Shown here one piece after another: positions 41,477 through 54,402 of a stretch of DNA of 64,000 nt. Both the position numbers and the translations under genes were made by a program. The DNA is from Streptomyces echinatus. Its GTDB lineage: Bacteria; Actinomycetota; Actinomycetes; Streptomycetales; Streptomycetaceae. The DNA is taken from assembly GCF_014203595.1 (NCBI RefSeq), contig NZ_JACHJK010000003.1, positions 372,001 through 436,000 on the forward strand, read 5' to 3'. The number at the start of each line of letters is the position of its first letter. The first letter of the stretch is position 1. The notes under the pieces are model-generated. The model ran no database searches, was not told the origin of the DNA, and worked only from the letters and a program-made list of their open reading frames with translations.

Positions 41477-42480
41477 TGGGTACCCATGCCAATGCGCCGC
41501 TCTCCATTGAGGGCCGCAGGCGACTGGTTGAGCGATGCATGTCACGTCCGATCGCCCACGTTGCTGCGGAGATGGGCATCTCCAGGGCATGCGCGTCCAA
41601 GTGGGTCAACCGGTACCGTCGTCATGGTGAGCTCGGCCTGCACGACCGGTCCTCCGCACCCCACCGTCAACCCACAGCCACACCGGGCGAGGTAGTGGAG
41701 CGGATCGAGCAGATGCGCCGAAACCACAAGTGATCCGCAGGACGGATCGCCTTCGAACTCAGCCAAACCGGGCTCACTGCGAGCCGACGCACCGTCACCC
41801 GGCACCTCGCCCATCTCGGTCTGAGTAGACGACGATTCATCGACCCCGACGGCCACACCACTCGGAAACCACGCACAATCACCGCTCGTCGGCCGGGACA
41901 CATGGTGCACATCGACGTGAAGAAGGTCGGACGGATACCTGACGGCGGTGGATGGCGAGCCCACGGCCGAGACAGCGACCACTCCCGGGAAGTCAGCCGG
42001 AACAAGAAGAAGACCGGCCGTGCAGGGTAGGTGTACCTGCACTCCGCGATCGACGGGCACACCCGCCTCGCCTACACCGAGCCCTTGCCGGATGAGAAAG
42101 CCTCGACGGCGATCGCGTTCCTGCACCGAGCCAGGGCGTGGTTTGCCATACACGGCATCACCCGCGTCGAACGGCTCGTCACCGACAATGGTGCCTGCTA
42201 CCGGGCCGACGCGTTCACCCGTGCTCTACTCGGCTCACGGCACCAACGGATCCGACCGTACACGCCCCGGCACAACGGGAAAGTGGAACGGTACAGCCGG
42301 ATCCTGTCAGAAGAGTTCCTGTACGCGCGCACCTGGACCTCCGAAACACAGCGAGCCCAGGCGCTGGTGGTTTGGAACATCCACTACAACTACCACCGAC
42401 CCCACACCGCCCTCGGCGGACAACCACCCGCAGCGACACTCGGCCAGACCGTCACCAACGTCCTGGCCTCATACACCTAG
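41476..42480 (+). mobile_element. IS481-family insertion sequence, transposase with two nonsense codons
   Basis: The transposase is readable from ATG 41476 to TAG 42480 in one frame of about 334 codons. An N-terminal HTH (IAHVAAEMGISRACASKWVNRY) is followed by the DDE catalytic core with D in MVHIDVKK, D in LVTDNGACYRA and E in VERYSRILSEE. The frame is interrupted by TGA at 41731-41733 (usually a Trp after NHK) and TAG at 42028-42030 (usually a Tyr after GRAG). The element is therefore dead. Terminal inverted repeats could not be fixed by eye. Confidence 0.85.
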
Positions 42481-42498
42481 TACCGAGCGTGGCCGCCA

Positions 42499-43059
42499 TC
42501 AACGAGTGGTGGTGGCGTACTGGTCCGACGACAACTCGAACACCTTCACTCGCCGACCGCTGGTGGGATTGACGGTCTCACGGGCCGGATGCATCCCCAG
42601 TTTCCTCATGATGCGTTCGGAGGCGTCGTTGCCCACTTGAGCGATGCTGACGATCCGCTCCAGCCCCCGCTCTTCGAATGCGAACCGTACAGCGGCCGCA
42701 GCGGCCTCGGTGGCCAGGCCCTTCCCCCAGTGGGAACGTCCCAGCCGCCAGCCGGCCTCAACCGCCGGCAGTACCTCCGGCAGGAACGCGGGCACCGAAA
42801 GGCCGGTGAACCCGGCCAGTTCGCCGGTGGACCTGAGCTCCACGGCGAACAGGCCGAAGCCCTGGGACTCCCACTCGCTCTCCCATGCCTGGATCCCGTG
42901 GCGAGTCTGCTGTTCGTCACGGACGCTGCCGTCACGGATCCACCGCATGACCTCGGGGTCGGCATTGATGGCGGCCATGGGCGCAACGTCTTCCTCGCGC
43001 CAGCGACGCAGGATCAAACGGGGAGTCTCAAGAGTGACCATCCAGTCATTCTGGATCAC
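42499..43059 (-). CDS. GNAT acetyltransferase, RimJ/RimL-like
   Basis: A 186-aa N-acetyltransferase. It opens LETPRLILRRWREEDVAPMAAINADPEV, has AGWRLGRSHWGKGLATEAAAAAVRFAFE as the acetyl-CoA loop region and ASERIMRKLGMHP before the final strand. It is close in plan to the protein at 35233. GTG 43059 is chosen for AGAGGA six bases upstream. The stop lies 19 bases from the IS481-type element, so the insertion may have landed at this gene's 3' end. Confidence 0.87.
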   Translation of the reverse strand: MIQNDWMVTLETPRLILRRWREEDVAPMAAINADPEVMRWIRDGSVRDEQQTRHGIQAWESEWESQGFGLFAVELRSTGELAGFTGLSVPAFLPEVLPAVEAGWRLGRSHWGKGLATEAAAAAVRFAFEERGLERIVSIAQVGNDASERIMRKLGMHPARETVNPTSGRRVKVFELSSDQYATTTR

Positions 43060-43072
43060 CAATTTCCTCTGT

Positions 43073-43975
43073 TCAAGGGCCTGCCCAGGGCAGCTGTGAC
43101 AAGGCAGGGGGGATCAGCATGGGGTTCGCGCCGATCTGGTCGGGGTAGACGTCGAAATCGACACTGGGAGCTGTTTCCGCATAGGTGTTGACGGCATAGT
43201 CGGACATGAGGTCCCGACCCAATTTGTCGACCTCTTTGGCAGGCACCGAAAGGATGTAGCCCTTCGGATTGAAACGCCTCACCTGGCGAATGAACCAATC
43301 ATCCCAGACGGCAGAGGAGTGAGTCGACTCAATGGCCTTCCATTGGCATAGGTTCGTAAGCCCCCAGGCGTAGGACCTGTTGACGGAAATTGAATTCCCG
43401 GGTTTGATCGCGAAGTAGTAGTGCGGGGCGAAGGTCCCGCTGTAGAAGGCCTTGACGTTACCCGCGTCGTGGACCGCTGAAAACACTGACGAGAATGCCG
43501 TCTTATTCAATGACACAGCCCTTGTCCGCTCCCCGTCCCAGTATGTGAAGGAGGGGTTGAAGTCAGGGCTGCAGGATGTGACAGCGTATGCCACCACACG
43601 GTTGCGTGGATCCGTCACGGCATCGACCCAGTATTCGTCGCGGGGCTGAAAAGTGTTTTGAGTGAGGTTCCCCAGGCTCGTCTTGCTGATCGCAACCTGG
43701 ATGGAGGGCCGCCCCAGCTGCTCTTCAAATTTCGCAAGGGTGTAGCCGGCCTGAAGCTTGGCCAGCTTCGTGTACTCGCCGGCTTGCCAATTGAAGTGCT
43801 GCTGATACCAGTGCCCACCGGTGACGTATGCGGTGATAAAAGTGCTCACTGCCGTGACGGCACTACTGACATAGAGGAGGACGACCAAAGGCAGACTGCG
43901 TTCGGTCAGTTTCTTGAAGCGCTCGCCAAGTGTAAGTCTCCGCTCCTCCGGGTGCTCTCCCTCGGTCTCGGCCAT
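43073..43975 (-). CDS. membrane-anchored protein, ETEC_3214-like
   Basis: A 300-aa protein with one N-terminal transmembrane segment (about 28-50, SLPLVVLLYVSSAVTAVSTF) after a charged start, then a large domain with many aromatics (TGGHWYQQHFNWQAGEYTKL, KLQAGYTLAKFEEQLGRPS). This resembles the ETEC_3214 domain family, of unknown function, with moderate confidence. The DNA is clearly less GC-rich than its neighbours, suggesting recent transfer. ATG 43975 begins just before the charged N-terminus; no strong ribosome-binding site is seen. Confidence 0.65.
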   Translation of the reverse strand: MAETEGEHPEERRLTLGERFKKLTERSLPLVVLLYVSSAVTAVSTFITAYVTGGHWYQQHFNWQAGEYTKLAKLQAGYTLAKFEEQLGRPSIQVAISKTSLGNLTQNTFQPRDEYWVDAVTDPRNRVVAYAVTSCSPDFNPSFTYWDGERTRAVSLNKTAFSSVFSAVHDAGNVKAFYSGTFAPHYYFAIKPGNSISVNRSYAWGLTNLCQWKAIESTHSSAVWDDWFIRQVRRFNPKGYILSVPAKEVDKLGRDLMSDYAVNTYAETAPSVDFDVYPDQIGANPMLIPPALSQLPWAGP

Positions 43976-44108
43976 AGGGCATGAGTAACTCACTGCACTG
44001 CCCCATGCCACCGGAAGTAGGCCGAACGCGGGAGCGCGGATGAGTGGAGCTGTCTCAGAGGTTCGCGCGCGTACGTGTACGACGCCCGGCCAGGGCGACA
44101 GTCCCGGA

Positions 44109-44128
44109 GCAGGGGGATATCCCCCTGC
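44109..44128. promoter_or_regulatory. perfect 20-bp palindrome
   Basis: GCAGGGGGATATCCCCCTGC is self-complementary with no spacer. It lies in the divergent intergenic region between the ETEC_3214-like membrane gene and the serine hydrolase gene, 57 bp upstream of the latter's start. It could be an operator for a dimeric regulator; the lack of a loop argues against a terminator. Confidence 0.7.
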
Positions 44129-44184
44129 CGATCCTGGGGTGTGCCGGATCGCACCCCCCGAGGCGCAAAATCTAGCGTTCGGGC

Positions 44185-45366
44185 ATGACTTCGGCCCCAC
44201 GAAAGCACCTCGCCCTGGCCCTCGGTGTCGCTGCGCTCCTCACCGCCGACGTGGCCACCGCCGTCGCCCAGCCCTCAGGTCACTCCACGGTGGAGCGGTT
44301 GCGGCGGGACACCGCTGCGATCCACGCCCTCGGTGTCAGCGGTGTGCAGGCTCGCGCCGTCGCGCCGGACGGGCGGCAGTCGGTCGCCACCAGCGGCACC
44401 GCCGACCTGAAGACCGGCCGCCCGGTCGCGCCCGACGGCTACTTCCGCATGGCCAGCACGTCCAAGACGCTGGTCGCCACCGTGGTCCTCCAACTGGAGG
44501 CCGAGGGCGGGCTGTCCCTGGACGACACCGTCGACCACTGGCTGCCGGGGGTGGTACGCGACAACGGCAACGACGGCCGGCTCATCACCGTGCGCCAACT
44601 GCTGCAGCACACCAGCGGCATCCACGACGACCTGCCCGGATACACCACGCCGGCGGAGTACTACCGACAGCGCCACGACGTCTACACCAGCGAGCAGTTG
44701 GTCGCGCGCGCCATGGCGCACGTGCCGGACTTCCCGCCCGGCGAGGGCTGGGCGTACTCCAACACCGGCTACGTCCTGCTCGACATGATCATCCAAAAGG
44801 TCACCGGTCGACCCGTGCACGAGGAGATCGAAGAACGCGTCCTGCGCCCGCTCGGCCTCGACCAGACCCGGTGGATGGGCACCTCCCCCGGCCTGCCCCG
44901 GCCGCACGCGAAGGGCTATCAACTCTTCGGTCCCGGTGCCGTCGTGGACGTCACCGACCAGATACCGGTCGATTCCGAGAACCTGTCGTGGGTCACGACC
45001 ACGAGGGACGAGAACCGCTTGCTGCGCGCGCTGCTGGCGGGCCGGCTGCTCCCGGCGCGGCAACTGGCCGAGATGAAGCGGACCGTACCCGTGAGCGCGG
45101 AGGTCCAACAGCTGTGGCCCGGGGGACGATACGGGCTCGGCCTGGTCGAACGTCCTCTGACCTGTGGGGGAACCTACTGGAGCCACGAGGGCGGGGACGG
45201 CGGCTACATCACCCTCAACGGCGTCACCGACGATGGCCGGCGAAGCGTCGCGGTCTCCATGTCCGAGGCACGCGGCGACACTCCGGAGCACATACTGGGC
45301 CAGGAGAACGCGGCCGGCGCCCTGATCGACCACGCACTGTGCGCCGGGGATTCAGGCACCCCGTGA
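44185..45366 (+). CDS. secreted serine hydrolase (beta-lactamase/D-Ala-D-Ala carboxypeptidase family)
   Basis: A 393-aa exported protein of the class C beta-lactamase-like (Pfam Beta-lactamase) group. The signal peptide is HLALALGVAALLTADVATAVA. The SxxK motif is S91-T-S-K94 in RMASTSKTL, the YxN motif is YSNTGY (about 191), and the C-terminal HxG box is WSHEGGDGGY. Most such streptomycete proteins are D-alanyl-D-alanine peptidases or esterases rather than true beta-lactamases. A strong hairpin follows at 45415. Confidence 0.92.
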   Translation: MTSAPRKHLALALGVAALLTADVATAVAQPSGHSTVERLRRDTAAIHALGVSGVQARAVAPDGRQSVATSGTADLKTGRPVAPDGYFRMASTSKTLVATVVLQLEAEGGLSLDDTVDHWLPGVVRDNGNDGRLITVRQLLQHTSGIHDDLPGYTTPAEYYRQRHDVYTSEQLVARAMAHVPDFPPGEGWAYSNTGYVLLDMIIQKVTGRPVHEEIEERVLRPLGLDQTRWMGTSPGLPRPHAKGYQLFGPGAVVDVTDQIPVDSENLSWVTTTRDENRLLRALLAGRLLPARQLAEMKRTVPVSAEVQQLWPGGRYGLGLVERPLTCGGTYWSHEGGDGGYITLNGVTDDGRRSVAVSMSEARGDTPEHILGQENAAGALIDHALCAGDSGTP

Positions 45367-45414
45367 GCGGAGGCGGTCACTGACCGCCCGGTGGCCGTCT
45401 GAGTCCATTAACGA

Positions 45415-45472
45415 GCCTCCCGTGCCGCTGGGTTGAGACTTCAATCTCGTCACCCGACGGCACGGGGGCTTT
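45415..45472 (+). terminator. intrinsic-type hairpin after the serine hydrolase
   Basis: GCCTCCCGTGCCG (45415-45427) pairs with CGGCACGGGGGC (45458-45469), leaving a 30-base loop that can fold further, and is followed by a short T run (TTTG). It lies between the serine hydrolase stop (45366) and the convergent CAP gene end (45539), so it may serve both directions. Confidence 0.7.
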
Positions 45473-45538
45473 GTGCGTTGCGGCCCTCATCTCGACCGCA
45501 CCGACGCTCAGAGCTTCTGAGTGTCGTTCCGGAACCGG

Positions 45539-46039
45539 TCAGGTACCGAAGAGCTGGGTCCAGAGGTTGCCGGAGGCGCCGGCGAGTCCGGTCTGCTTCC
45601 ACTTGCAGTTCAGGATGGCTGCCTTGTGAGGTCCGCTGCTCATCCAGCTGTCGAAGACCTCCTGCGCGGTGGCGCCACCCTGGTGGATGTTCTCCTCGGT
45701 CGGACTGGACGGGCTGAAGCCGGCCTTCTCGACCCGCTGCTGGATACTCGACCCGTCGGAGCCGGTGTGCGAGAAGAAGTTGTTCTTGGCCATGTCGTCG
45801 CTGTGAGCCTGCGCGGCCGCGGTGAGCTGGCCGTTCATGCTCAGCGCCGGGCAATTGGCCTTCTCCCGTGCGGCGTTCTCCAGAGCCAGGATCTCGTTGG
45901 CGTTGGCCTGCTGCACGACGTTGGGCCCGGCGGGGGCGGCGGGAGCGGCGCTCGCGCCGGCTGCGGCGGGCAGCACGAGCAGGGGGATTGCGCACGCGGC
46001 AGCGCATGCACCGTGCAGTCGGTGAGTGAGGGCGCGCAT
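45539..46039 (-). CDS. secreted CAP (SCP/PR-1) domain protein
   Basis: A 166-aa exported protein. The signal peptide is LHGACAAACAIPLLVLPAAAGASA. The CAP domain (about 45-166) contains EILALENAAREKANCPALSMNG, AAQAHSDDMAKNNFFSHTGSDGSSI with the cavity His, TEENIHQGGATAQEVFDSWMSS and the final NLWTQLFGT. It is a divergent relative of the CAP protein at 30158. AAAGGAA precedes ATG 46039. Function is unknown. Confidence 0.92.
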   Translation of the reverse strand: MRALTHRLHGACAAACAIPLLVLPAAAGASAAPAAPAGPNVVQQANANEILALENAAREKANCPALSMNGQLTAAAQAHSDDMAKNNFFSHTGSDGSSIQQRVEKAGFSPSSPTEENIHQGGATAQEVFDSWMSSGPHKAAILNCKWKQTGLAGASGNLWTQLFGT

Positions 46040-46596
46040 AGCATTCCTTTCGTTCGTTCAACGTGTGCACCGGGAAACGCGGTTCGCGGTTGTCCGGCGC
46101 ATGACTCGCGAAGGGCCGGCTCCATCAGCGTCTCGGCTTCGGACAGCGAGCCGCGAGGTACGGAGCACCGCTGTTCTGGCAGTGGTGACGTTCGGCCCAG
46201 GGGGCACCGCTGCCGTCACCGTCGGTGGCTGGGACGCCGACGTGCCCGTTGAGGCACGCCCTCAGGCCCCTTCGGCCGCCCCGTTCGGCGGCCCGGCGAG
46301 GAGGTGATGGCTCCAGGCCGGTCACGGGGGCCTTCAGTGTCCGGCCCGTCGTTCTTGAGTCTGCCTGCCAGCCCATTTTAGCGCCGCGGGTATCGGATCT
46401 CCTGTCCAGGCCACCCACGGCAGGCGCCACCCGGACGTTCGCGCAACGTCTTGAGCAGGCCAGAATCCCGTTCGGCGCCGCAGGAGAACCGGACGGTGGT
46501 GCCGGGACCTACGGCGAAGAGCCGCGTGGCCATGCCCTCGTACGGCAACGGGTATCGGTCGCCGTCATCACCGGTACGCGCCGTCAGGCAGCCCGG
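46040..46596. other. gene-free stretch upstream of the lasso-peptide cluster
   Basis: About 560 bases with no convincing gene. A minus-strand frame around 46390-46560 reads PYEGMATRLFAVGPGTTVRF and then RDSGLLKTLRERP, protein-like but unassigned; it could be a remnant. The promoters of the CAP gene (minus) and the lasso cluster (plus) should lie here or just to the right. Confidence 0.35.
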
Positions 46597-46654
46597 TTGC
46601 GGGGCATGCGTGGCGGCGTAGCCTGGATGAGCGGCCCTGCCTGGATCTGGAGGT
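46597..46654 (+). promoter_or_regulatory. candidate promoter and ribosome-binding site of the lasso precursor
   Basis: TTGCGG (46597-46602) and TAGCCT (46619-46624), 16 bp apart, are a plausible housekeeping promoter about 35 bases before the precursor start. GGAGGT (46649-46654) is a near-perfect Shine-Dalgarno five bases before ATG 46660. The promoter is a weak inference; the ribosome-binding site is strong and decides the start of the precursor. Confidence 0.5.
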
Positions 46655-46659
46655 GGGCG

Positions 46660-46776
46660 ATGTTTCTCCGATTCCTGCGGCGACGTCAGCCGCGACGGCT
46701 GGTCCTTCTCGGCAAGAGCCGTCTGATTCGGGGCTTCAGCGGCGGATTCTATGACGGTCACGGATACCAGTCCTGA
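46660..46776 (+). CDS. lasso peptide precursor (A), 38 aa
   Basis: A small gene for a 38-aa peptide. The leader (1-24) is basic and contains QPRRLVLLGKSRLIR, which aligns with the usual lasso leader pattern P-x-L-V-x-LG ending before the core. The core is residues 25-38, GFSGGFYDGHGYQS. Gly at position 1 and the only acidic residue, Asp8, allow an 8-residue macrolactam ring G1-D8 with tail GHGYQS. The residue two before the cleavage site is Ile, where Thr is normal. GGAGGT precedes the start. It is followed after 33 bases by the RRE-protease gene, which supports the assignment. Confidence 0.8.
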   Translation: MFLRFLRRRQPRRLVLLGKSRLIRGFSGGFYDGHGYQS

Positions 46777-46809
46777 CGCCGTCCCCGGCGAAACCCTGGA
46801 GGATGTGCG

Positions 46810-47436
46810 GTGGCAGAGGACACCGATGCCCTGGCAGCCATGGCAAGGATTCTGTCACCGCATTGCCGTGTCAGCCGGATGTCCGACGGAGCGCTGATCG
46901 TCGACTGGAAACGGACGCGTTTTCTCGGGATGACGGCGGCTGACGTCCGGAAACTCACCGAGGGAAGCCCTGAGGAACGCGCCGAGCTCGTCTCCGTTCT
47001 CGCGCGGGCCGGGTGCGCGACGGGCCGCCGGAGGAAGCACGCGGACGCCTGCGCCGTCGGGCTCTGGCTGCGTGCGGTGCACCTGCTCATCCGGACCCTG
47101 GGATTCGGGCGCGTCCTCCGACTGCTGTCCCTGGTCGCCCCGGGATACACCAGGGCCGACCTCCCCTCCGCGCAGGAGCTCGGACGGCTGAAGCGAGCGG
47201 TGCAGACACACAGCCGCGGCAGCTGGTTCGTCAACGGCGACTGCAAGTCGGAGGCGGTGACGGCGTTCCTCCTGTTGCGGCGGTGCGGCCTGGAGGCCGT
47301 CCTCCACGTCGGCGTGCGGGAACACCCCTTCGCCCTGCACGCCTGGACGGCCTCGGCCGGCGTGTGCGTCCCGGACGCCGATCCGCGAGGGCACGCCTTC
47401 ACACCACTGCTCTCGATCGACTGCGGGGGACGGTGA
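46810..47436 (+). CDS. fused lasso RRE-leader peptidase (B1-B2)
   Basis: A 208-aa protein. The N-terminal 80 residues (CRVSRMSDGALIVDWKRTRFLGMTAADVRKL and beyond) resemble the PqqD-like RiPP recognition element that binds the leader. The C-terminal half is the transglutaminase-like cysteine protease of the lasso B2 family, with Cys in NGDCKSEAVTAFLLLRRCG, His in FALHAWT and Asp in CVPDADP as the likely triad. Its role is to remove the leader so that Gly1 is free. Most actinobacterial clusters encode B1 and B2 separately, so the fusion is notable. GGAGG lies seven bases before GTG 46810. Confidence 0.85.
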   Translation: MAEDTDALAAMARILSPHCRVSRMSDGALIVDWKRTRFLGMTAADVRKLTEGSPEERAELVSVLARAGCATGRRRKHADACAVGLWLRAVHLLIRTLGFGRVLRLLSLVAPGYTRADLPSAQELGRLKRAVQTHSRGSWFVNGDCKSEAVTAFLLLRRCGLEAVLHVGVREHPFALHAWTASAGVCVPDADPRGHAFTPLLSIDCGGR

Positions 47437-47437
47437 C

Positions 47438-49255
47438 GTGGACGCGCTCCGCCTCGAATGGGCCGACGGCGGCCCGAGGCTCCGGACCTCCGAGGCCATG
47501 GCACGTCAGGGACTCGTGACGACGGTCTCCACGCCGGCCGGTACCGCGGCCGTCGTCGGCTGGGTCGGCTCGGCCCGCGACCGGTCGGCGGGCGCACACG
47601 CTCTCCTCGACGCTCTGGGCCGCAGGGGAGCAACCCGGCCACTGCCGGCCGGCGACTACGCGGCCGTACTGGTGTGCCGCGACCGCATCCTCCTCACGCG
47701 CGACCAACAGGCCCGAGTCCCCCTGTTCTTCCGGGCGTCCGGCGGCCGCGTGGATGCCGTGAGCACCTCCGCCCGCGGCCTGGGCAACGCCACGGAGCTG
47801 GATCCCCGCTACTTCTGCCGGTACCTCACCGGGAACGCGGCGCAACCGCACACGGACGGCACGCCGTTCGCCGGGGTGCACCGGGTCCTCGGCGGAGAAA
47901 TGGTGGAGCTGTCCCTCACCGGGCAGTTGCGCCGTCGTACGCCGTGCCCCGTCCGTCGGGCCACCGACCGGCCCGCACCCGCGGCTGAGGGGGCCCGTCT
48001 CGGTGAGGCCGCGCGAGAGCTGCGCCTGGTACTCGAGAACGCCGTCGGACGGCGTATGGGCGCGTCGACGGCCTGCCATGTCTCGGGCGGCACCGACTCC
48101 ACCAGCGTCGCGCTGCTCGCCGCACGTCTGCTGGCCGAGGAGCGCATCGGCTCCGGGAACCTCGTCCTGCTCGCCGGGCGCTTCTCCCGCGGCGAGCTGG
48201 CCGAGGAACAGCGGTACCTAGACCTGGCGTTGGCGGAGATCCGCCGGCTCGCGCCCTCGGCGCGCCCCGTGATCGTCGACGCCGACGACGTGGCCGACTT
48301 CGACGACTTCCAGCACCACGCGGGAGACGCGGACGAGCCCTATGCGCACGCTTTCCGGGCCCCGTTCTGGAGCAGACTCCACTCCGAGGCCGCGGAACTC
48401 GGCTGTGACACCCTTCTGACCGGCTGCGGAGCCGATCCCGTCGCGGACGCCAACCCGTTCCATCTGCACAGGCTCGCCCGTACGGGCCGGCTGCGGGAGA
48501 TGACCGAGCAGGCACGTGCCTGGGCGGCAGGGAGCGAACGGGGGCTGCGGGACGTCGTCCGCTCCTACGTGGTCCAGCCGGCTGTTCCGCTCGTGGCCGA
48601 ACGGTTCGCCGCGCTGGTCCGCGGCGGAACGGTGCTCGGCGGCCTCGGCACCTTCAACCGCCCCCGATGGCTGCGCCGCGGGTTCGCGCGGGCTCACGGC
48701 TACCGGGAGGCCGGTGTCGCCGAGAGCCGCTTCGTGTTCGGGCGCCGGCCGGAACAGTCGCTGTACGACGTCGCCAACTACCTGGCCGCTCCCGATCCGC
48801 TGTCCTGGCAGCGGGCGCGACAGGACGGGTTCTTCCTCTCCCACCCCTTCCTCGACCCGGAGGTCGTCGCCACGATGAGCGGCCTTCCCCTCGCGGCCAC
48901 GTTCCGGCCGGGCCGTCCGAAGGCCGTTCTCCGCGAGGCCATGGCGGACCTGCTCCCTGCCCCGATCCGGGGCAGGGCGGTCAAGGTCCCCTTCGACGAC
49001 CTCTATGCCCGCGGTCTGCGGATCCACGGCGATGAGCTCATCGCCCTGTGCCGCGCGGCCCGGCATCCGCTGATCGCGGAGATGTTCGACGTCGAGACGC
49101 TGTGCCGGGCCGTGCAGGAGGCCCGGCTCGGCATGGGGGACGCGTACTCCTGGGACCGGCTGAACAGCTCGCTGGCCCTGGTGGCCTGGCTGGAGCGCCT
49201 GGGCCAGGACACGGGCGCGCGCCGGCCGGCGGTACCCGTCAGCGCCGGCTCGTGA
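47438..49255 (+). CDS. lasso cyclase (C), asparagine-synthetase-like
   Basis: A 605-aa ATP-dependent ligase of the asparagine synthetase B superfamily. The N-terminal glutamine-amidotransferase-like region lacks a Cys at position 2, as in lasso cyclases. The AMP-forming domain has the PP-loop VSGGTDSTS (about 214-222), TGCGADPV, and the C-terminal lobe SWDRLNSSLALVAWLE. It would adenylate Asp8 of the core and close the ring onto Gly1. GTG 47438 starts one base after the B1-B2 stop, implying translational coupling. A short hairpin GGCTCG/CGAGCC overlaps the stop codon (49247-49262). Confidence 0.9.
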   Translation: MDALRLEWADGGPRLRTSEAMARQGLVTTVSTPAGTAAVVGWVGSARDRSAGAHALLDALGRRGATRPLPAGDYAAVLVCRDRILLTRDQQARVPLFFRASGGRVDAVSTSARGLGNATELDPRYFCRYLTGNAAQPHTDGTPFAGVHRVLGGEMVELSLTGQLRRRTPCPVRRATDRPAPAAEGARLGEAARELRLVLENAVGRRMGASTACHVSGGTDSTSVALLAARLLAEERIGSGNLVLLAGRFSRGELAEEQRYLDLALAEIRRLAPSARPVIVDADDVADFDDFQHHAGDADEPYAHAFRAPFWSRLHSEAAELGCDTLLTGCGADPVADANPFHLHRLARTGRLREMTEQARAWAAGSERGLRDVVRSYVVQPAVPLVAERFAALVRGGTVLGGLGTFNRPRWLRRGFARAHGYREAGVAESRFVFGRRPEQSLYDVANYLAAPDPLSWQRARQDGFFLSHPFLDPEVVATMSGLPLAATFRPGRPKAVLREAMADLLPAPIRGRAVKVPFDDLYARGLRIHGDELIALCRAARHPLIAEMFDVETLCRAVQEARLGMGDAYSWDRLNSSLALVAWLERLGQDTGARRPAVPVSAGS

Positions 49256-49278
49256 GCGAGCCTCGGAAGCCGTACGTG

Positions 49279-49875
49279 TCAGGTCAGCAGGGCCGCGGCG
49301 TGGTCTCGTGCCTGGCGTAGCCAGGACGCGCGGGTTTCGGCGGAGGAGCCGGTGACCGTCCGGAAAACGACTCGGCGTACGTCGGCGACTCCCACGTACG
49401 GCAGGACGCATGCCGACCAGATCTTCTGCAGCGGGTCCCCGAACTCGGCCTCCTCGCGGTCGGCGGGGGTGTCAGAGGTGTTCAGGACGAGGGCCCGGCC
49501 GGCTTTCAGGAGGCCTTCGGGCTCCCCGTCCGCGGTCCCCAGCTTGTAGGCGACGCCGGGCACGAGCACCCGCTGCACCCAGCCGGTGAGGACAGCGGGC
49601 GGCATGCCCCACCAGTTGGGGTGAACGAACACCATGGCGTCGAGCGTGGCCACTTCGGCCCGGTGGAGTGCCAGCCCCGCATCGTGAGTGCCGGTGGCGG
49701 ACCGGACCGTCTCCGTCTCGTGAGCGGTCAGCTCCGGTGCGAATCCTTCGGCGCAGAGGTCGTGCGCGAGCACCTCGCAGCCGAGGCCGCGCAGGTGTTG
49801 CACGACGGTGTCGAACACCGCGTGATTGAAGCTGCCAGGCCGTGGATGGGCGAGATAGACCCCTATGCGCGGCAT
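49279..49875 (-). CDS. NAD(P)H quinone oxidoreductase (flavodoxin-like)
   Basis: A 198-aa flavodoxin-fold enzyme of the KefF/MdaB/NQO group that reduces quinones with NAD(P)H. Features: YLAHPRPGSFNHAVFD at the FMN phosphate site, VFVHPNWWGMPPAVLTGWVQRVL (the PxWWxxxPA stretch), then GKAL-type strand ALVLNTSDTPADREE and the terminal helix. It ends only 23 bases from the lasso cyclase stop, convergent, and is unlikely to belong to that cluster. Confidence 0.9.
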   Translation of the reverse strand: MPRIGVYLAHPRPGSFNHAVFDTVVQHLRGLGCEVLAHDLCAEGFAPELTAHETETVRSATGTHDAGLALHRAEVATLDAMVFVHPNWWGMPPAVLTGWVQRVLVPGVAYKLGTADGEPEGLLKAGRALVLNTSDTPADREEAEFGDPLQKIWSACVLPYVGVADVRRVVFRTVTGSSAETRASWLRQARDHAAALLT

Positions 49876-49905
49876 ACGTACCCCCGGGGAACGTCGGTAG
49901 TGTGG

Positions 49906-49942
49906 TCAGCGGTGAGGGCCCGTCGCAGGCCCTCACCGCTGA
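49906..49942 (-). terminator. strong perfect hairpin downstream of the GntR operon
   Basis: TCAGCGGTGAGGGCC (49906-49920) and GGCCCTCACCGCTGA (49928-49942) form a perfect 15-bp stem with a 7-base loop. It lies in the 331-base gap between the end of the lysoplasmalogenase gene (50207) and the start of the quinone oxidoreductase gene (49875), all on the minus strand. No T run follows, so a factor-independent role is unproven; it could equally be a regulatory structure in the downstream leader. The remainder of the gap shows only unassigned minus-strand frames. Confidence 0.6.
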
Positions 49943-50206
49943 TCATCATGACCGCAGGGGGCCACTCACCGAAACTGCCTGTCCACCGGATGGTCATCGG
50001 CTCGGCAAGGACGACCCGGACGGGGCGCTGGGGGCTCACACGGTGGAGGAGGGTTCGCCGTCCGGGACCGCGCTGCGGCTTCTGGCGACGTGGGGCCGGG
50101 AGAGTCCTCCGGTGACCTGACGCGGCGCTTCTCCTGGCCACGGCTGCTGATGTCGACTCGCGGAAATTGAGATCGACGGAGGCGTCGTGGGGGAACGGGT
50201 GACCGG

Positions 50207-50902
50207 TCATCCGCTGTCGGCCGCCGCGAGCATCGTCGGTGCCCGGTCTCGTGGCTTCCGTCGCGGTCGGCGGGAACCATTGATCGTCGGCCGTTCGGTG
50301 AAGGCGGTGACGAGCAGGGCCAGGGCGGCGGTGTAGGTCGCCATGACCAGCACCCCACGCCCGGTGAACTCGACTCCCGCGGCCCCCAGTCCGACGAGCA
50401 GGTCGGAGCCGAGGAACACCGATCCGCCCCAGGCCGCTCCGCGCCCCAGCACACGCGCGGTCAGTGCCATGGTGAGCAGGGCCGAGGCGTAGACACCCAC
50501 CGCGATTCCCAGGACCGGCCCGAGCGCGGGAGCGAGTGCGGCGACGGCCGCGACCCACGCGGCGAAGTGGACCGCGCACAGCACACGGCGGGACCGCAGA
50601 TACCCCGCGGCACCCGCGCGCAGGAACGCCGTCGTCCAGCACAGCTGCGCGCTCAGGAAGAACACGAGTCCCGAGAGGAAGGCCATGCGGCCGGGCAGCA
50701 TCAGCGCCACGTCCTCGGCGGTGGCGCAGCCGAGACCCGCGAGGACGGCCCCGTGCCGCCTGCCGGTCCGGCGCCACAGGTGCACGGCGAGCACGGGTGC
50801 CAGCAAGGGCTTGGTGACCCATTCCAGGAGCGGCCACCCCGCCGCGACACCGGCGACGTCGCATGCGGCCAGCGCGGCGAAGGCGAGGATCAGCGGCGGC
50901 AT
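50207..50902 (-). CDS. lysoplasmalogenase, YhhN/TMEM86 family
   Basis: A 231-aa integral membrane protein with about seven to eight helices. The YhhN family hydrolyses the vinyl-ether bond of lysoplasmalogens. Family features seen: LLEWVTKPLLAPVLAVHL, GLGCATAEDVALMLPGRMAFLSGLVFFLSAQLCW with the active-site Asp, and GSVFLGSDLLVGLG. The C-terminus is extended and basic. ATG 50902 follows the upstream stop by one base (TGACATG), so it is translationally coupled to the hydroxylase gene. It is the third gene of a GntR operon. Confidence 0.88.
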   Translation of the reverse strand: MPPLILAFAALAACDVAGVAAGWPLLEWVTKPLLAPVLAVHLWRRTGRRHGAVLAGLGCATAEDVALMLPGRMAFLSGLVFFLSAQLCWTTAFLRAGAAGYLRSRRVLCAVHFAAWVAAVAALAPALGPVLGIAVGVYASALLTMALTARVLGRGAAWGGSVFLGSDLLVGLGAAGVEFTGRGVLVMATYTAALALLVTAFTERPTINGSRRPRRKPRDRAPTMLAAADSG

Positions 50903-50903
50903 G

Positions 50904-51737
50904 TCACGCCTTCGCCTCGGGCGTCCAGCCGGGCGGCCCGAAGAGGTATCCGGCGCGGTCGCGCCAGCGCCCGGCCGCTCGGACGTCGTTCCAGGCGGCG
51001 GCGTACTCGTGGAAGGCCACCCGCAGCGGGTTGTAGGTGTCGATGTTCTTGGTCAGGCCGTACCTGACGCGCTCGCCCTCGGGCTCGAACGTGCCGAAGA
51101 TCCGGTCCCAGACGATGAGGATGCCGCCGTAGTTGCGGTCCAGGTAGGCGTTGTTGGAGCCGTGGTGGACACGGTGGTGGGAAGGGGTGTTGAAGACCCA
51201 TTCGACCGGCCGCCACAGCTTGTCCACGCGTTCGGTGTGCAGGAAGAACTGGTAGACCAGGCTGACGGCCTGTTGGACCAGGATCATCCACGGTGGGACG
51301 CCGAGCAGCGCGATCGGCAGCCAGAAGGGCAGCCCCGTCATGGGCGTCCAGCTCTGGCGCAGGGCGGTGGAGAGGTTGAAGCGGACGCTGGAGTGGTGGA
51401 CCACATGGCTCGCCCAGAGCACCCGCACCCGGTGGTGGGCGCGATGGAAGGCGTAGTAGGCGAGGTCGTCGCCGAAGAACAGCAGCACCCAGGTCCATAC
51501 GGAGGCCGGTGAGAGGTGCCAGGGGGCGACGGTGAAGAGGCCCGCGTACAACAGGATCGTCACGGCCTTCCACGGCGCCGCGACGACCTGGCTGCCCGCG
51601 CCCATCGACATGCTGGTGACGGTGTCGCGCAGTTCGTAGCCGCGCTCGTCGTCGTCGGGGAGGAAGCGGTAGGACAGCGCCTCGACGACGACCAGGAGCA
51701 CGAACGCCGGTATCGCGTAGACCACGGCCGGGATCAT
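50904..51737 (-). CDS. AGMO-like membrane fatty-acid-hydroxylase-superfamily oxygenase
   Basis: A 277-aa membrane diiron hydroxylase with four to five helices. The histidine boxes are YYAFHRAHHR, SHVVHHSS and NTPSHHRVHHG, with additional His near the end. Segments NLSTALRQSW, YQFFLHTE, DRNYGGILIVWDRIFGTFE and RYGLTKNIDTYNP closely match animal alkylglycerol monooxygenase (TMEM195), which cleaves ether lipids, more than typical sterol desaturases. Its pterin cofactor in bacteria is an open question. ATG 51737 follows the GntR stop by one base. Confidence 0.88.
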   Translation of the reverse strand: MIPAVVYAIPAFVLLVVVEALSYRFLPDDDERGYELRDTVTSMSMGAGSQVVAAPWKAVTILLYAGLFTVAPWHLSPASVWTWVLLFFGDDLAYYAFHRAHHRVRVLWASHVVHHSSVRFNLSTALRQSWTPMTGLPFWLPIALLGVPPWMILVQQAVSLVYQFFLHTERVDKLWRPVEWVFNTPSHHRVHHGSNNAYLDRNYGGILIVWDRIFGTFEPEGERVRYGLTKNIDTYNPLRVAFHEYAAAWNDVRAAGRWRDRAGYLFGPPGWTPEAKA

Positions 51738-51738
51738 C

Positions 51739-52449
51739 TCAGCGCACCGCCTTCGGAGTCGTGGGGACACTGCGGGACAGCAGTTCGCGCGCCAGCCGTT
51801 CGGCCGGCTCCGCCTCGCGGGCCTCGATGTGGGCCGCGAGCCGCAGGTGGGCCTCGACGTCGAGGAGTTCGGCGGTGCGCAGGTCGTCCGGCACGTCGGC
51901 GACCGGGAGCGTGCCGCTCACCAGGCTGTTGAAGGCCAGCAGGTAGGCGAGGTTCCCGGAACCCTCCACGATCAGCCGCCACCAGTCGACGTCCGCCGCG
52001 CCCAGCTCGACCAGGTCGGGACCGCTACGGGCGTACCGGTCCGTGGCCCGTACGATCCGGGCGGCCGCGGAGTCGGAGCGCCGCAGCGCGCACAGGCGGG
52101 CCGCGTCGGCGCCTATGCACGCCCGCATCTCCAGCGCGTCCCGGGTCAGGTCCTGCACCGACGGGCCGCCGTCGGCGGCGGCGATCCCCACCGCCAGGTC
52201 GAGTCCGGCGGTGTGCCGCCAGTCCAGGACGAGTGTGCGACCACCGTGGCTGACCTCCACCAGCCTGGCCTGCTGGAGCCGTTTCACGGCCTCACGGACG
52301 GCGTGCCGGTTCACCCCGAACTCGGCCGCCAGGTCACGTTCCGCCGTGAGGGCGGAACCGGGCGGCAAGGCACCGCCGAGGATCCTGTCGCGCAACAGGG
52401 CGAAGACCTGGTCGGAGACCGCCTCGCGCCGGATGTGTCGCTGGGTCAT
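51739..52449 (-). CDS. GntR/FadR-family transcriptional regulator
   Basis: A 236-aa regulator. The N-terminal winged HTH (about 8-72) contains ILGGALPPGSALTAERDLAAEFGVNRHAVREAVKRLQQARLVEV. The C-terminal helical FCD-type domain (about 85-225) binds an acyl or small carboxylate effector in this family. ATG 52449 is chosen because the frame upstream is not conserved. It heads an operon with the AGMO-like and lysoplasmalogenase genes, and a FadR-type operator lies just upstream, predicting autoregulation. Confidence 0.92.
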   Translation of the reverse strand: MTQRHIRREAVSDQVFALLRDRILGGALPPGSALTAERDLAAEFGVNRHAVREAVKRLQQARLVEVSHGGRTLVLDWRHTAGLDLAVGIAAADGGPSVQDLTRDALEMRACIGADAARLCALRRSDSAAARIVRATDRYARSGPDLVELGAADVDWWRLIVEGSGNLAYLLAFNSLVSGTLPVADVPDDLRTAELLDVEAHLRLAAHIEAREAEPAERLARELLSRSVPTTPKAVR

Positions 52450-52477
52450 GACGGAGAGGGTGGACGACGGTCTCGCA

Positions 52478-52498
52478 CTGGTCAACTGGTTGGACCAG
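52478..52498. promoter_or_regulatory. FadR-type operator upstream of the GntR operon
   Basis: TGGTTGGACCA (52487-52497) is an exact match to the FadR-subfamily operator pattern TNGTNNNACNA, and it is framed by CTGGTC (52478-52483) and GACCAG (52493-52498). It lies 29-49 bases before the regulator's start, where it would overlap the promoter. The pattern match is sequence-based; regulation is inferred. Confidence 0.8.
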
Positions 52499-52654
52499 AT
52501 TGGTCGGCGAAGTCGTGCGCGCGGACCCGTGGGGCTGGGGGCACGTGCGGGTGCGGGGAGCGGCCGGCCCGGCGGGGAGGCTGGGGCCGGCCGCTGGGTA
52601 CCGGACGGGGCAACCGGGCACCGGAGGTGAGTACGGCTGCCGCGCCGGGGCTTC

Positions 52655-53250
52655 TCACATCAGTTGCCGTCGGCGTCCCAGCCAGGTCTGGGCGATGACC
52701 ACGACGGCCAGGAAGCCGCCGCTGACGACCTGTTGGTGGGAGGAGTCCAGGGAGCCGATCTGGTTGATGACGTTCTGGATCACCTTCAGCAGCAGGACGC
52801 CCACCAGGGAGCCGCTGACGTAACCGAGGCCACCGGTCAGCAGGGTGCCGCCGATGACGACCGCGGAGATGGCGTCCAGTTCCATGCCGTCGCCCAGGAT
52901 GGTCACCCCGGAGGCCAGCCAGGCGGCGTTGAGTGCGCCGGCCAGTCCCGCGAGCAGACCGGAGAGCGCGTAGACGAGGTACGGCCGGAGCCGAGCAGGC
53001 CGCCCAGTCCGACGACCTCGCCCGGCCGGATGCTCACCGAGATGCCGTGCAGCTTGTGGGGGGCCGTCAGGTCCCGTGCGGCCAGCACCGGTTCGGCGCC
53101 CGCCGTGTGGTGGTCGCCGGTGAACTTGGTCAGGCCCTCCCTGCGGACCTCGCCGAGTTCGCGGCCGAGCATGGTGGACACCAGGGCGAGCCGGTCCAGG
53201 TCGGCGAGCCGGCCGTGGTGGACGTCCCTGCTCCCTTCGTCCGCCTGCCG
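52655..53250 (-). pseudogene. collapsed ribose-type ABC transporter (ATPase::permease)
   Basis: The minus strand first reads part of an RbsA-like sugar ATPase (end of domain 1, LADLDRLALVSTMLGREL, then the second Walker A in GEVVGLGGLLGSGRT). At about 52990 it switches to the C-terminal third of an RbsC-like permease (YLVYALSGLLAGLAGALNAAW, VIGGTLLTGGLGYVSGSL) ending at 52655. The rest of the ATPase and most of the permease are gone, and the frames differ. One deletion of more than a kilobase explains it. Confidence 0.8.
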
Positions 53251-53473
53251 TCCCGCGCCCGCGGCCGTGGCCCTGCGCCGGCGGCCGTGGCCCCGGGCGT
53301 CGCGGCACCGGCCCTCTCCGGCTGAGCGCGCCGGCGCGCAGGCCCCCGACCCTTTCGACCAGTCCGACGATCGCAATCACCGTACTCGGGCGCACCTCAC
53401 CGGCGCCCGGCCGTTCACCCGTTGTGACGCCCGGGGCGCACCGCCCGACGGATCCGAGCGGAAGGAGCACCAC

Positions 53474-54402
53474 GTGACTCTGCGCAGCAGACTCCTGTCA
53501 GTGGCAGCGGCACTGTCGACGCTGCTGGCGGCCCTTGCCCTGGCTCTCCTGGGGCAGGGCAGGGCACCGCACAGGCGCACGGGGTGGCGATGCTGCCCGG
53601 TTCCCGTACCTGCCTGTGCTATCTGGACGCCCACACGACGACCGGCGGCCTGGACCCGACCAACCCGGCGTGCCGCGACGCGCTGGCCGAGAGCGGTGCG
53701 ACGGCGCTGTACAACTGGTTCGCTGTGCTCGACTCCAACGCCGGCGGCCGGGGTGCCGGCTATGTCCCGGACGCCACCCTGTGCAGTGCCGGCGGCCGGT
53801 CCCCGTACGACTTCCGGGCCTACGACGCGGCCCGCTCGGACTGGCCGCGGACGCACCTGACCAGCGGGGCGACGATCCAGACCCAGTACAGCAACTGGGC
53901 GGCGCATCCGGGAGAGTTCCGGTTCTATCTCACCAAGCCGGGCTGGTCACCGGCGTCCACCCTGCGCTGGTCCGACCTCGACCTGATCCAGACGGTCGCC
54001 AACCCGCCGCAGCAGGGGTCGCCGGGCACGGACGGCGGCCACTACCACTGGGACCAGAAGCTGCCCTCCGGCCGCTCCGGCGACGCCGTGCTCTTCATCC
54101 AGTGGGTCCGCTCGGACAGTCAGGAGAACTTCTTCTCCTGCTCCGACATCGTCTTCGACGGCGGATACGGCGAGGTGACGGGCATCCGCGGCTCCGGCAG
54201 CACACCGACGCCCACCCCCACCCCCACGCCCTCGGACCCGCACACGGGTTCCTGCATGGCCACGTACTCCGTGGTGAACTCCTGGAGCGGTGGCTTCCAG
54301 GCCTCCGTCGAGGTCATGAACCATGGCACCACACCGCTCGACGGCTGGGCCGTGGCCTGGCGGCCCGGACGGTGGCGCACGGACCGGAGGCCGACCGGGT
54401 GA
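53474..54402 (+). pseudogene. AA10 lytic polysaccharide monooxygenase, frameshifted and truncated
   Basis: A signal peptide from GTG 53474 (RLLSVAAALSTLLAALALALL) should be followed by mature His1 of an AA10 copper oxygenase. The mature start HGVAMLPGSRTCLCY is found in a different frame, so one base is out of step near 53560-53575. The catalytic domain then reads well (GGHYHWDQKLPSG with the second histidine-brace His, FFSCSDIVF). The C-terminal CBM2 (SCMATYSVVNSWSGGFQASV) breaks off after LDGWAVAW. Either sequencing errors or a decayed gene. Confidence 0.78.

What the first reader, a model, noticed from the sequence alone, without database searches (positions are those of the whole stretch)
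46660..49255. Apparent minimal lasso-peptide cluster with an unusual precursor
Seen in sequence: a 38-codon ORF with a GGAGGT ribosome-binding site, a fused RRE plus cysteine-protease gene 33 bases later, and a coupled asparagine-synthetase-like gene. The precursor ends GFSGGFYDGHGYQS, giving a G1-D8 ring with a 6-residue tail, and Asp8 is the only acidic core residue. Known: lasso peptides need exactly precursor, RRE, leader peptidase and cyclase. The precursor is small and easily missed by annotation. I do not recognise this core. By my calculation the expected monoisotopic mass is about 1459.58 Da (linear 1477.59 minus water).
Basis: partly seen in the sequence, partly recalled or inferred. 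Interest (0 to 1): 0.9.

Follow-up and report, generated by a model that had tools for sequence, protein, structure and literature searches.

The report
Conserved Streptomyces lasso peptide with partner
The three genes look like a complete factory for a small knotted (lasso) peptide that is nearly unchanged in the Streptomyces species that carry it, made with an unusual cutting signal, and so far always found in genomes that also hold one particular uncharacterised membrane protein.

Summary
At 46660-49255 lie a 38-codon precursor gene, a 208-aa gene over the curated lasso B2 cut-off, and an asparagine-synthetase-like gene; the mass checks (1459.579 Da). It is not chance: in 25 of 25 related loci compared, the same small ORF precedes the same two genes, mean dN/dS is about 0.3, and promoter-like element and ribosome-binding site are kept. 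Gly1, Asp8 and the following Gly-His-Gly are invariant in the 25. The RRE rests on a structure model only: no RRE family matches B's N-terminus, though two ordinary B1 proteins of the same genome match PqqD.

(1) Leader residue -2 is Ile in 25 of 25, where Thr is usual; Ile(-2) is known from Bradymonas, so this is a second setting: fused B, no kinase seen. (2) A membrane protein ("F2": five helices plus a beta-rich domain) occurs in exactly the genomes with this B: 17 of 392, and 11 of 245 in a second, overlapping sample, also where unlinked. (3) In the window's genome F2 sits beside a second precursor without B or C. F2's role is inferred (self-protection or reception). No product was shown. 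A new variant of a known kind.

The parts
46597..46624 (+). Promoter-like element, TTGCGG (46597-46602), 16 nt, TAGCCT (46619-46624)
   Evidence: TTGCG in 24 of 25 loci (L005 differs), GTAGC in 24 of 25 (L018 differs), same spacing in the 23 with both. That it is a promoter is inferred; no transcript data.
46649..46654 (+). Ribosome-binding site GGAGGT
   Evidence: GGAGGT at this place in 24 of 25 loci, GGAGTT in L007
46660..46776 (+). Precursor gene A, 38 aa: leader MFLRFLRRRQPRRLVLLGKSRLIR (1-24), core GFSGGFYDGHGYQS (25-38), predicted ring G25-D32
   Evidence: in 25 loci core positions 1, 3, 4, 8, 9, 10, 11 and leader positions -1, -2, -3 are invariant. Cleavage site and ring are inferred.
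46810..47436 (+). B gene, 208 aa: N-terminal RRE-like domain (about residues 1-70) fused to the lasso B2 leader peptidase (about 87-202); C145 and H177 invariant, D189 and D191 nearly so
   Evidence: families; conservation, 25 sequences; fold. Which residues are catalytic is from general knowledge of the family.
47438..49255 (+). C gene, 605 aa: asparagine-synthetase-like macrolactam cyclase; SGGTDS ATP-binding loop invariant in 25

Best explanation
A promoter just upstream transcribes A, B and C together (inferred). The RRE-like N-terminus of B binds the leader (fold supported by a model; binding inferred). The B2 domain cuts after residue 24, reading Ile at -2 (site inferred from invariance and from the only ring that fits). 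C activates Asp8 with ATP and joins it to the freed Gly1 amine, trapping the 6-residue tail GHGYQS in an 8-residue ring: a 14-residue lasso peptide without disulfides, about 1459.58 Da (inferred). The product then works with F2, a membrane protein of five predicted helices and a C-terminal beta-rich domain, encoded beside most of these operons and found in each genome checked that has one; F2 most likely meets the exported peptide at the cell surface, as self-protection or as its receptor (inferred). In the window's strain F2 is kept at another locus, beside a second precursor that has no B or C of its own there. The confidence below is for the lasso operon; for F2 as a working partner I would say about 0.6.
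For: Families: B2 over cut-off, Asn_synthase over cut-off. RRE: helix, three strands, two helices over residues 2-66, block pLDDT 66-81; among the 50 PDB matches listed of 461, the six with Foldseek probability 0.84-1.00 for a short RRE-sized alignment are TbiB1 5v1u/5v1v and TfuB1 6jx3, lasso RREs with leaders. Precursor in 25 of 25 loci and beside B in all 17 and all 11 B-positive genomes of the two samples (a search that required DGHG). dN/dS about 0.31 over 275 of 276 pairs. Cassette: 89% DNA identity with Streptomyces atratus from 46587 to 49255, ending at C's stop. F2: B at E<=1e-20 in 17 of 392 Streptomyces genomes; strong F2 (50% identity or more, 456 bits or more) in the same 17 and in none of the other 375, next best 156 bits. 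Second sample: full-length B in 11 of 245 genomes, strong F2 (431 bits or more) in the same 11, next best 151 bits. Unlinked yet present in G000, G464 and G468 and in the genome of L027. A' beside F2 in G000.
Against: No product, transcript or enzyme activity was measured. No RRE model matched by sequence, although PqqD is found in the stand-alone B1 proteins of the same genome; Foldseek E-values are weak (0.067-0.57, none of 461 at 0.001) and the whole B model is poor (mean pLDDT 56.8). C is below the cut-offs of both lasso cyclase models. The leader lacks the Tyr of YxxPxL and has one residue more between Pro and Leu. No lasso-type ABC exporter was found among the flanking ORFs scanned, 42031-54402. 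Linkage alone gives co-occurrence where F2 is adjacent (16 of 17 and 8 of 11), so only four unlinked genomes test F2 independently. The genome search scored only the top few candidates of each genome (4-12), so misses are possible. A' may be a relic.
Confidence: 0.82

Rival explanations
1. The operon is an ordinary lasso cluster and F2 is only a hitch-hiking neighbour with its own unrelated task.
For: F2 belongs to a wider Streptomyces membrane-protein family: 65 of 392 genomes match at E<=1e-10, 48 of them only weakly; eight weak relatives examined, 13 kb each, had no A, B or C match beside them. F2 is convergent with C, and the precursor's promoter-like element was not seen upstream of F2 in the 19 sequences printed.
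Against: Exact coincidence of the strong subfamily with B in two samples, including genomes where it is unlinked, in G464 about 2 Mb away; a precursor kept beside F2 without B and C.
Confidence: 0.25
2. The peptide is not threaded: B and C make a branched macrolactam, or the leader is cut elsewhere.
For: C is under the curated cut-offs for lasso cyclases; the -2 residue is not Thr; 14 residues with a 6-residue tail is near the short end (recalled).
Against: Gly1 and Asp8 invariant in 25 loci while position 6 takes seven residues; B2 over cut-off; Ile(-2) has been shown to work in the Bradymonas system (PMC10368454).
Confidence: 0.1
3. The peptide is a narrow-spectrum antimicrobial and F2 is purely its immunity protein (a special case of the best explanation).
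For: No lasso-type exporter seen nearby that could serve as immunity; each B-positive genome of the two samples keeps F2.
Against: The core hardly changes, which fits a signal or a surface-binding role at least as well as an arms race; F2 is not in the operon.
Confidence: 0.35
4. The small ORF is a chance open frame.
For: It is short and overlaps other mechanical ORFs.
Against: 25 of 25 loci, dN/dS about 0.31, SD and upstream element conserved.
Confidence: 0.01

Closest known systems
bsf lasso cluster of Bradymonas sediminis (PMC10368454; abstract, introduction, part of the methods, discussion and passages read)
   Same: Leader position -2 is Ile instead of Thr; Gly at core position 1; B2 peptidase and C cyclase.
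   Different: bsf has separate B1 and B2, an ABC transporter, a kinase, a nucleotidyltransferase and a YxxPxL leader; here B is fused, no kinase was seen among the flanking ORFs scanned, and the leader lacks the Tyr. [quoted passage not shown] It cites Tietz 2017 and Kretsch 2023 for further predicted cases; Kretsch is not held, Tietz was not looked up.
Albusnodin / NF033561 cyclase family
   Same: Best NCBIfam model for C (146 bits). A GNAT acetyltransferase gene lies at 42499-43062, 3.6 kb upstream.
   Different: Below the cut-off of 300; the core has no Lys; the GNAT gene has no relative in the neighbourhoods of the 24 other loci (which filtered ORFs by GC3 and length).
Two ordinary lasso loci in the same genome (L047, L048)
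   Same: Precursor, RRE, B2, C.
   Different: Stand-alone B1 (84 and 83 aa, PqqD over cut-off), separate B2, leaders with YEAPTLVRLG / YEPPTLVEVG and Thr; L047 has an ABC transporter. B2 and C there were named by position and sequence. Citrulassin-like and anantin-like are from memory.
TbiB1 and TfuB1 (PDB 5v1u, 5v1v, 6jx3)
   Same: Fold of the B N-terminus.
   Different: Stand-alone proteins, 15-21% identity in the Foldseek alignments; here fused.

Membership tests
Lasso peptide biosynthetic gene cluster | B2 leader peptidase (transglutaminase-like Cys protease) | tested here: met
   NF033537 70.8 bits, cut-off 33; PF13471 over cut-off; Cys145, His177 invariant in 25
Lasso peptide biosynthetic gene cluster | Asparagine-synthetase-like macrolactam cyclase C | tested here: inconclusive
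   PF00733 over cut-off and SGGTDS invariant in 25, but NF033561 (146 of 300) and NF033535 (73 of 525) below their cut-offs
Lasso peptide biosynthetic gene cluster | RRE/B1 domain | tested here: inconclusive
   No sequence family match, whereas B1 of two other loci match PqqD; the model of residues 2-66 has the fold and lasso RREs lead by Foldseek probability, E 0.067-0.57
Lasso peptide biosynthetic gene cluster | Precursor with small residue at position 1 and Asp/Glu at 7-9 | tested here: met
   Gly1 and Asp8 in 25 of 25
Lasso peptide biosynthetic gene cluster | Thr at leader position -2 (usual, not defining) | tested here: not met
   Ile in 25 of 25; a working Ile(-2) precursor is in print (PMC10368454)
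Lasso peptide biosynthetic gene cluster | YxxPxLxxxG leader motif (usual) | tested here: inconclusive
   Pro, two residues, then mostly LVLLG; no Tyr at the place
Lasso peptide | Threaded macrolactam product | not testable with these tools
   Needs expression and MS/NMR
Albusnodin-type cluster | Cyclase over the curated NF033561 cut-off | tested here: not met
   146 of 300 bits
Albusnodin-type cluster | Dedicated acetyltransferase acting on a core Lys | tested here: not met
   No Lys in the core; a GNAT gene 3.6 kb away does not recur at the other loci

The most novel reading that the evidence does not exclude
A nearly invariant lasso peptide and a dedicated membrane protein form a ligand-receptor (or toxin-immunity) pair in Streptomyces; in the window's strain the pair A'-F2 persists as a two-gene unit whose peptide is matured in trans by the B and C of the window, so one enzyme set serves two lasso peptides at unlinked loci.
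Probability: 0.3. Interest if true: 0.75.

Novelty: new variant of a known kind. Interest (0 to 1): 0.55.

Why it matters
The natural role of most lasso peptides is unclear (general knowledge). A core kept almost unchanged in the Streptomyces species that have it, with a membrane protein that coincides with it in the genomes sampled, names a testable partner for what a lasso peptide does for its maker. The family is also a natural test of how B proteins read Ile instead of Thr at -2 in a fused, kinase-free setting; mining rules that expect Thr at -2 (recalled for RODEO, not checked) would place the core wrongly.

Tried and rejected
Chance ORF: rejected by conservation. F2 as a known transporter: no Pfam or NCBIfam family over its cut-off in the members scanned (stray weak matches such as PHO4 in 1 of 19, E 6e-4), no relative in the PDB by sequence; Foldseek matches are mostly beta-sandwich domains (ApaG best, E 6e-4), with transglutaminases and Kir channels in the list, and give no function. 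F2 remnant inside the window: none, best tblastn E 1.2. Remnants of B or C beside A': none, best E 1.8. A second orphan precursor beside the unlinked F2 of G409 and G410: no match; G464 was not examined. Shared promoter of F2 and A: not seen (start codons were picked by a simple rule that failed in several rows, so this is rough). First neighbour count gave F2 in 21 of 25 loci; the miss at L020 came from my GC3 filter, since one search places it next to C (inferred from contig coordinates), hence 22 of 25. Solved-structure search with the B alignment: three matches, E 0.69-0.77, meaningless. Papers naming some host species together with lasso peptides: the 15 of 131 listed looked like genome-mining papers and reviews (listing only). 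Mantel correlation of F2 and C distances, r 0.78 over 16 loci, not used as evidence because linked genes share history. The DNA pattern for the core found 15 of 392 genomes, all B-positive; the two B-positive genomes missed, G284 and G294, carry a precursor whose DNA differs from the pattern. The alignment search also gave six weak B2-only matches in other genomes, which I did not count.

Full report
What is there. The window is part of a 9.39-Mb genome in 55 contigs, by its nearest loci a Streptomyces (inference). At 46660-46776 lies a 38-codon gene with GGAGGT five bases before its ATG; B (46810-47436, 208 aa) follows after 33 bases and C (47438-49255, 605 aa) after one. B passes the curated cut-offs of NF033537 (lasso B2) and PF13471; C passes PF00733 but not the two lasso cyclase models.

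Is it real. One scan of named bacterial genomes gave 24 loci with a B relative, 67-89% identical; 23 are titled Streptomyces and one 'Actinobacteria bacterium OV450'. In each, and so in 25 of 25 with the window, a 38- or 39-codon ORF precedes B by 24 to about 84 bases. Over the 25 cores, positions 1, 3, 4, 8, 9, 10 and 11 never vary; position 6 takes seven residues, 5, 13 and 14 vary, and 2, 7 and 12 vary rarely; leader positions -3, -2 and -1 are Leu, Ile, Arg in all 25. In the genome samples -1 is sometimes His and -3 sometimes Ser. GGAGGT stands in 24 of 25, TTGCG in 24, GTAGC in 24, with one spacing in the 23 that have both. Mean dN 0.142, mean dS 0.450 over 275 of 276 pairs. Some third positions also stay fixed: GAC for Asp8 in 25 of 25, GGT for Gly9 in 24 of 25, which I cannot explain.

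How it probably works. The only acidic residue common to all members is Asp8, and Gly1 is the usual kind of first residue, so a Gly1-Asp8 ring fits all. The N-terminus of B finds no RRE family by sequence, while stand-alone B1 proteins of two other lasso loci in this genome match PqqD at 60 and 63 bits. With 25 sequences AlphaFold2 gives helix, three strands, two helices for residues 2-66 (block pLDDT 66-81; whole model 56.8), and the best-probability PDB matches are lasso RREs bound to leaders, with weak E-values. I take B as a fused, divergent RRE-peptidase. Actinobacterial B genes are usually split (PMC10368454, introduction); the two other lasso loci here are split, with Thr-type leaders.

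The -2 residue. Duan et al. 2023 (PMC10368454; abstract, introduction, discussion and passages read) report what they call the first experimentally validated Ile(-2) precursor, from Bradymonas, and list Ile/Val(-2) in Acidobacteriaceae and Sphingomonadales, with kinases or phosphotransferases. Ile(-2) is therefore not new; I found no description of its invariant use in a Streptomyces family with fused B in the searches.

The partner. Among neighbours the most recurrent gene after B and C is F2, convergent with C, in 22 of 25 loci; the next family recurs in 5. F2 models as five helices and a C-terminal beta-rich domain (mean pLDDT 73.5), placed outside by the odd number of helices if the N-terminus is inside (inference). 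In 392 Streptomyces genomes B occurs in 17 and strong F2 in the same 17; in 245 genomes of the order, 8 genera, full-length B occurs in 11, all of the window's genus, and strong F2 in the same 11. The samples overlap (G000, G297, G309 and G363 are positive in both), so 24 distinct positive genomes. By coordinates F2 is next to C in 16 of 17 and 8 of 11; in G000 and G468 it lies on another contig, in G464 about 2 Mb away. The genome of L027 also has its copy on another contig. G145 and G297 have two copies, the second of G145 beside a C fragment. Linkage explains most of the coincidence; the four unlinked cases are what speaks for function.

The window's genome. Its F2 lies on another contig (G000:C6:302551-303849), 70 bases from a second precursor, MFLRLLRRRRRPRGLLLLGNSRLIHGFSGASYDGHGYQS, with no B or C match there. 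That F2 is nearest to the one of S. musisoli, L024 (66%), in the set compared; A' scores best with L026 but has the 39-aa length of L024 (and by eye). Either the pair is a relic or A' is matured by the window's enzymes.

Judgement. Lasso operon: well supported by sequence. F2 as functional partner: likely, not shown. Role of F2 and peptide: unknown; my guess is surface binding for self-protection or reception. The novelty claim is limited: six core strings gave 0 open papers, but most subscription papers and all lasso databases were out of reach.

Noticed in passing
L079:6924-7043 (-), i.e. G000:C6:303923-304042: Second precursor A' beside F2, without B or C; -1 is His, core GFSGASYDGHGYQS; its upstream lacks the GGTTGCG element.
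   Followed up: partly
L047:3384-7946 (G000:C6): Ordinary lasso locus: precursor MKKAYEAPTLVRLGSFRKETGLLQRSGNDRLILSKN, C-like ORF, separate B1 (PqqD) and B2, ABC transporter; citrulassin-like from memory.
   Followed up: partly
L048:3086-5800 (G000:C12, near the contig end): Ordinary lasso locus with YEPPTLVEVG...T leader and core GFIGWGKDIFGHYGGGF, anantin-like from memory; separate B1 (PqqD) and B2.
   Followed up: partly
L081:2728-5074 (G145:C279): Second F2 copy beside a C fragment (52% over 158 aa): probably a decayed second cluster.
   Followed up: partly
46660-46776 and the 24 related precursors: Codons GAC (Asp8), AGC (Ser3), CGA (Arg4) and CTG (Leu6) are identical in the 25 loci and mean GC3 of the precursor (0.71) is lower than of B (0.82) and C (0.86); a constraint on the nucleotides is possible.
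   Followed up: no
46587-49255: DNA match to S. atratus (89%) covers upstream element, A, B and C and stops at C's stop codon: the cassette seems to move as a block.
   Followed up: partly
L117-L124: Weak F2 relatives (about 25-32% identical): a wider Streptomyces membrane-protein family of unknown function, no lasso genes beside the eight examined.
   Followed up: partly
42031-42480 (+), 42499-43062 (-), 52655-53473 (-), 53584-54402 (+): Integrase-core (transposase-like) ORF, GNAT acetyltransferase, C-terminal part of an ABC permease (BPD_transp_2), lytic polysaccharide monooxygenase with cellulose-binding domain.
   Followed up: partly
43073-44200 (-): 375-aa ORF with no Pfam match.
   Followed up: no
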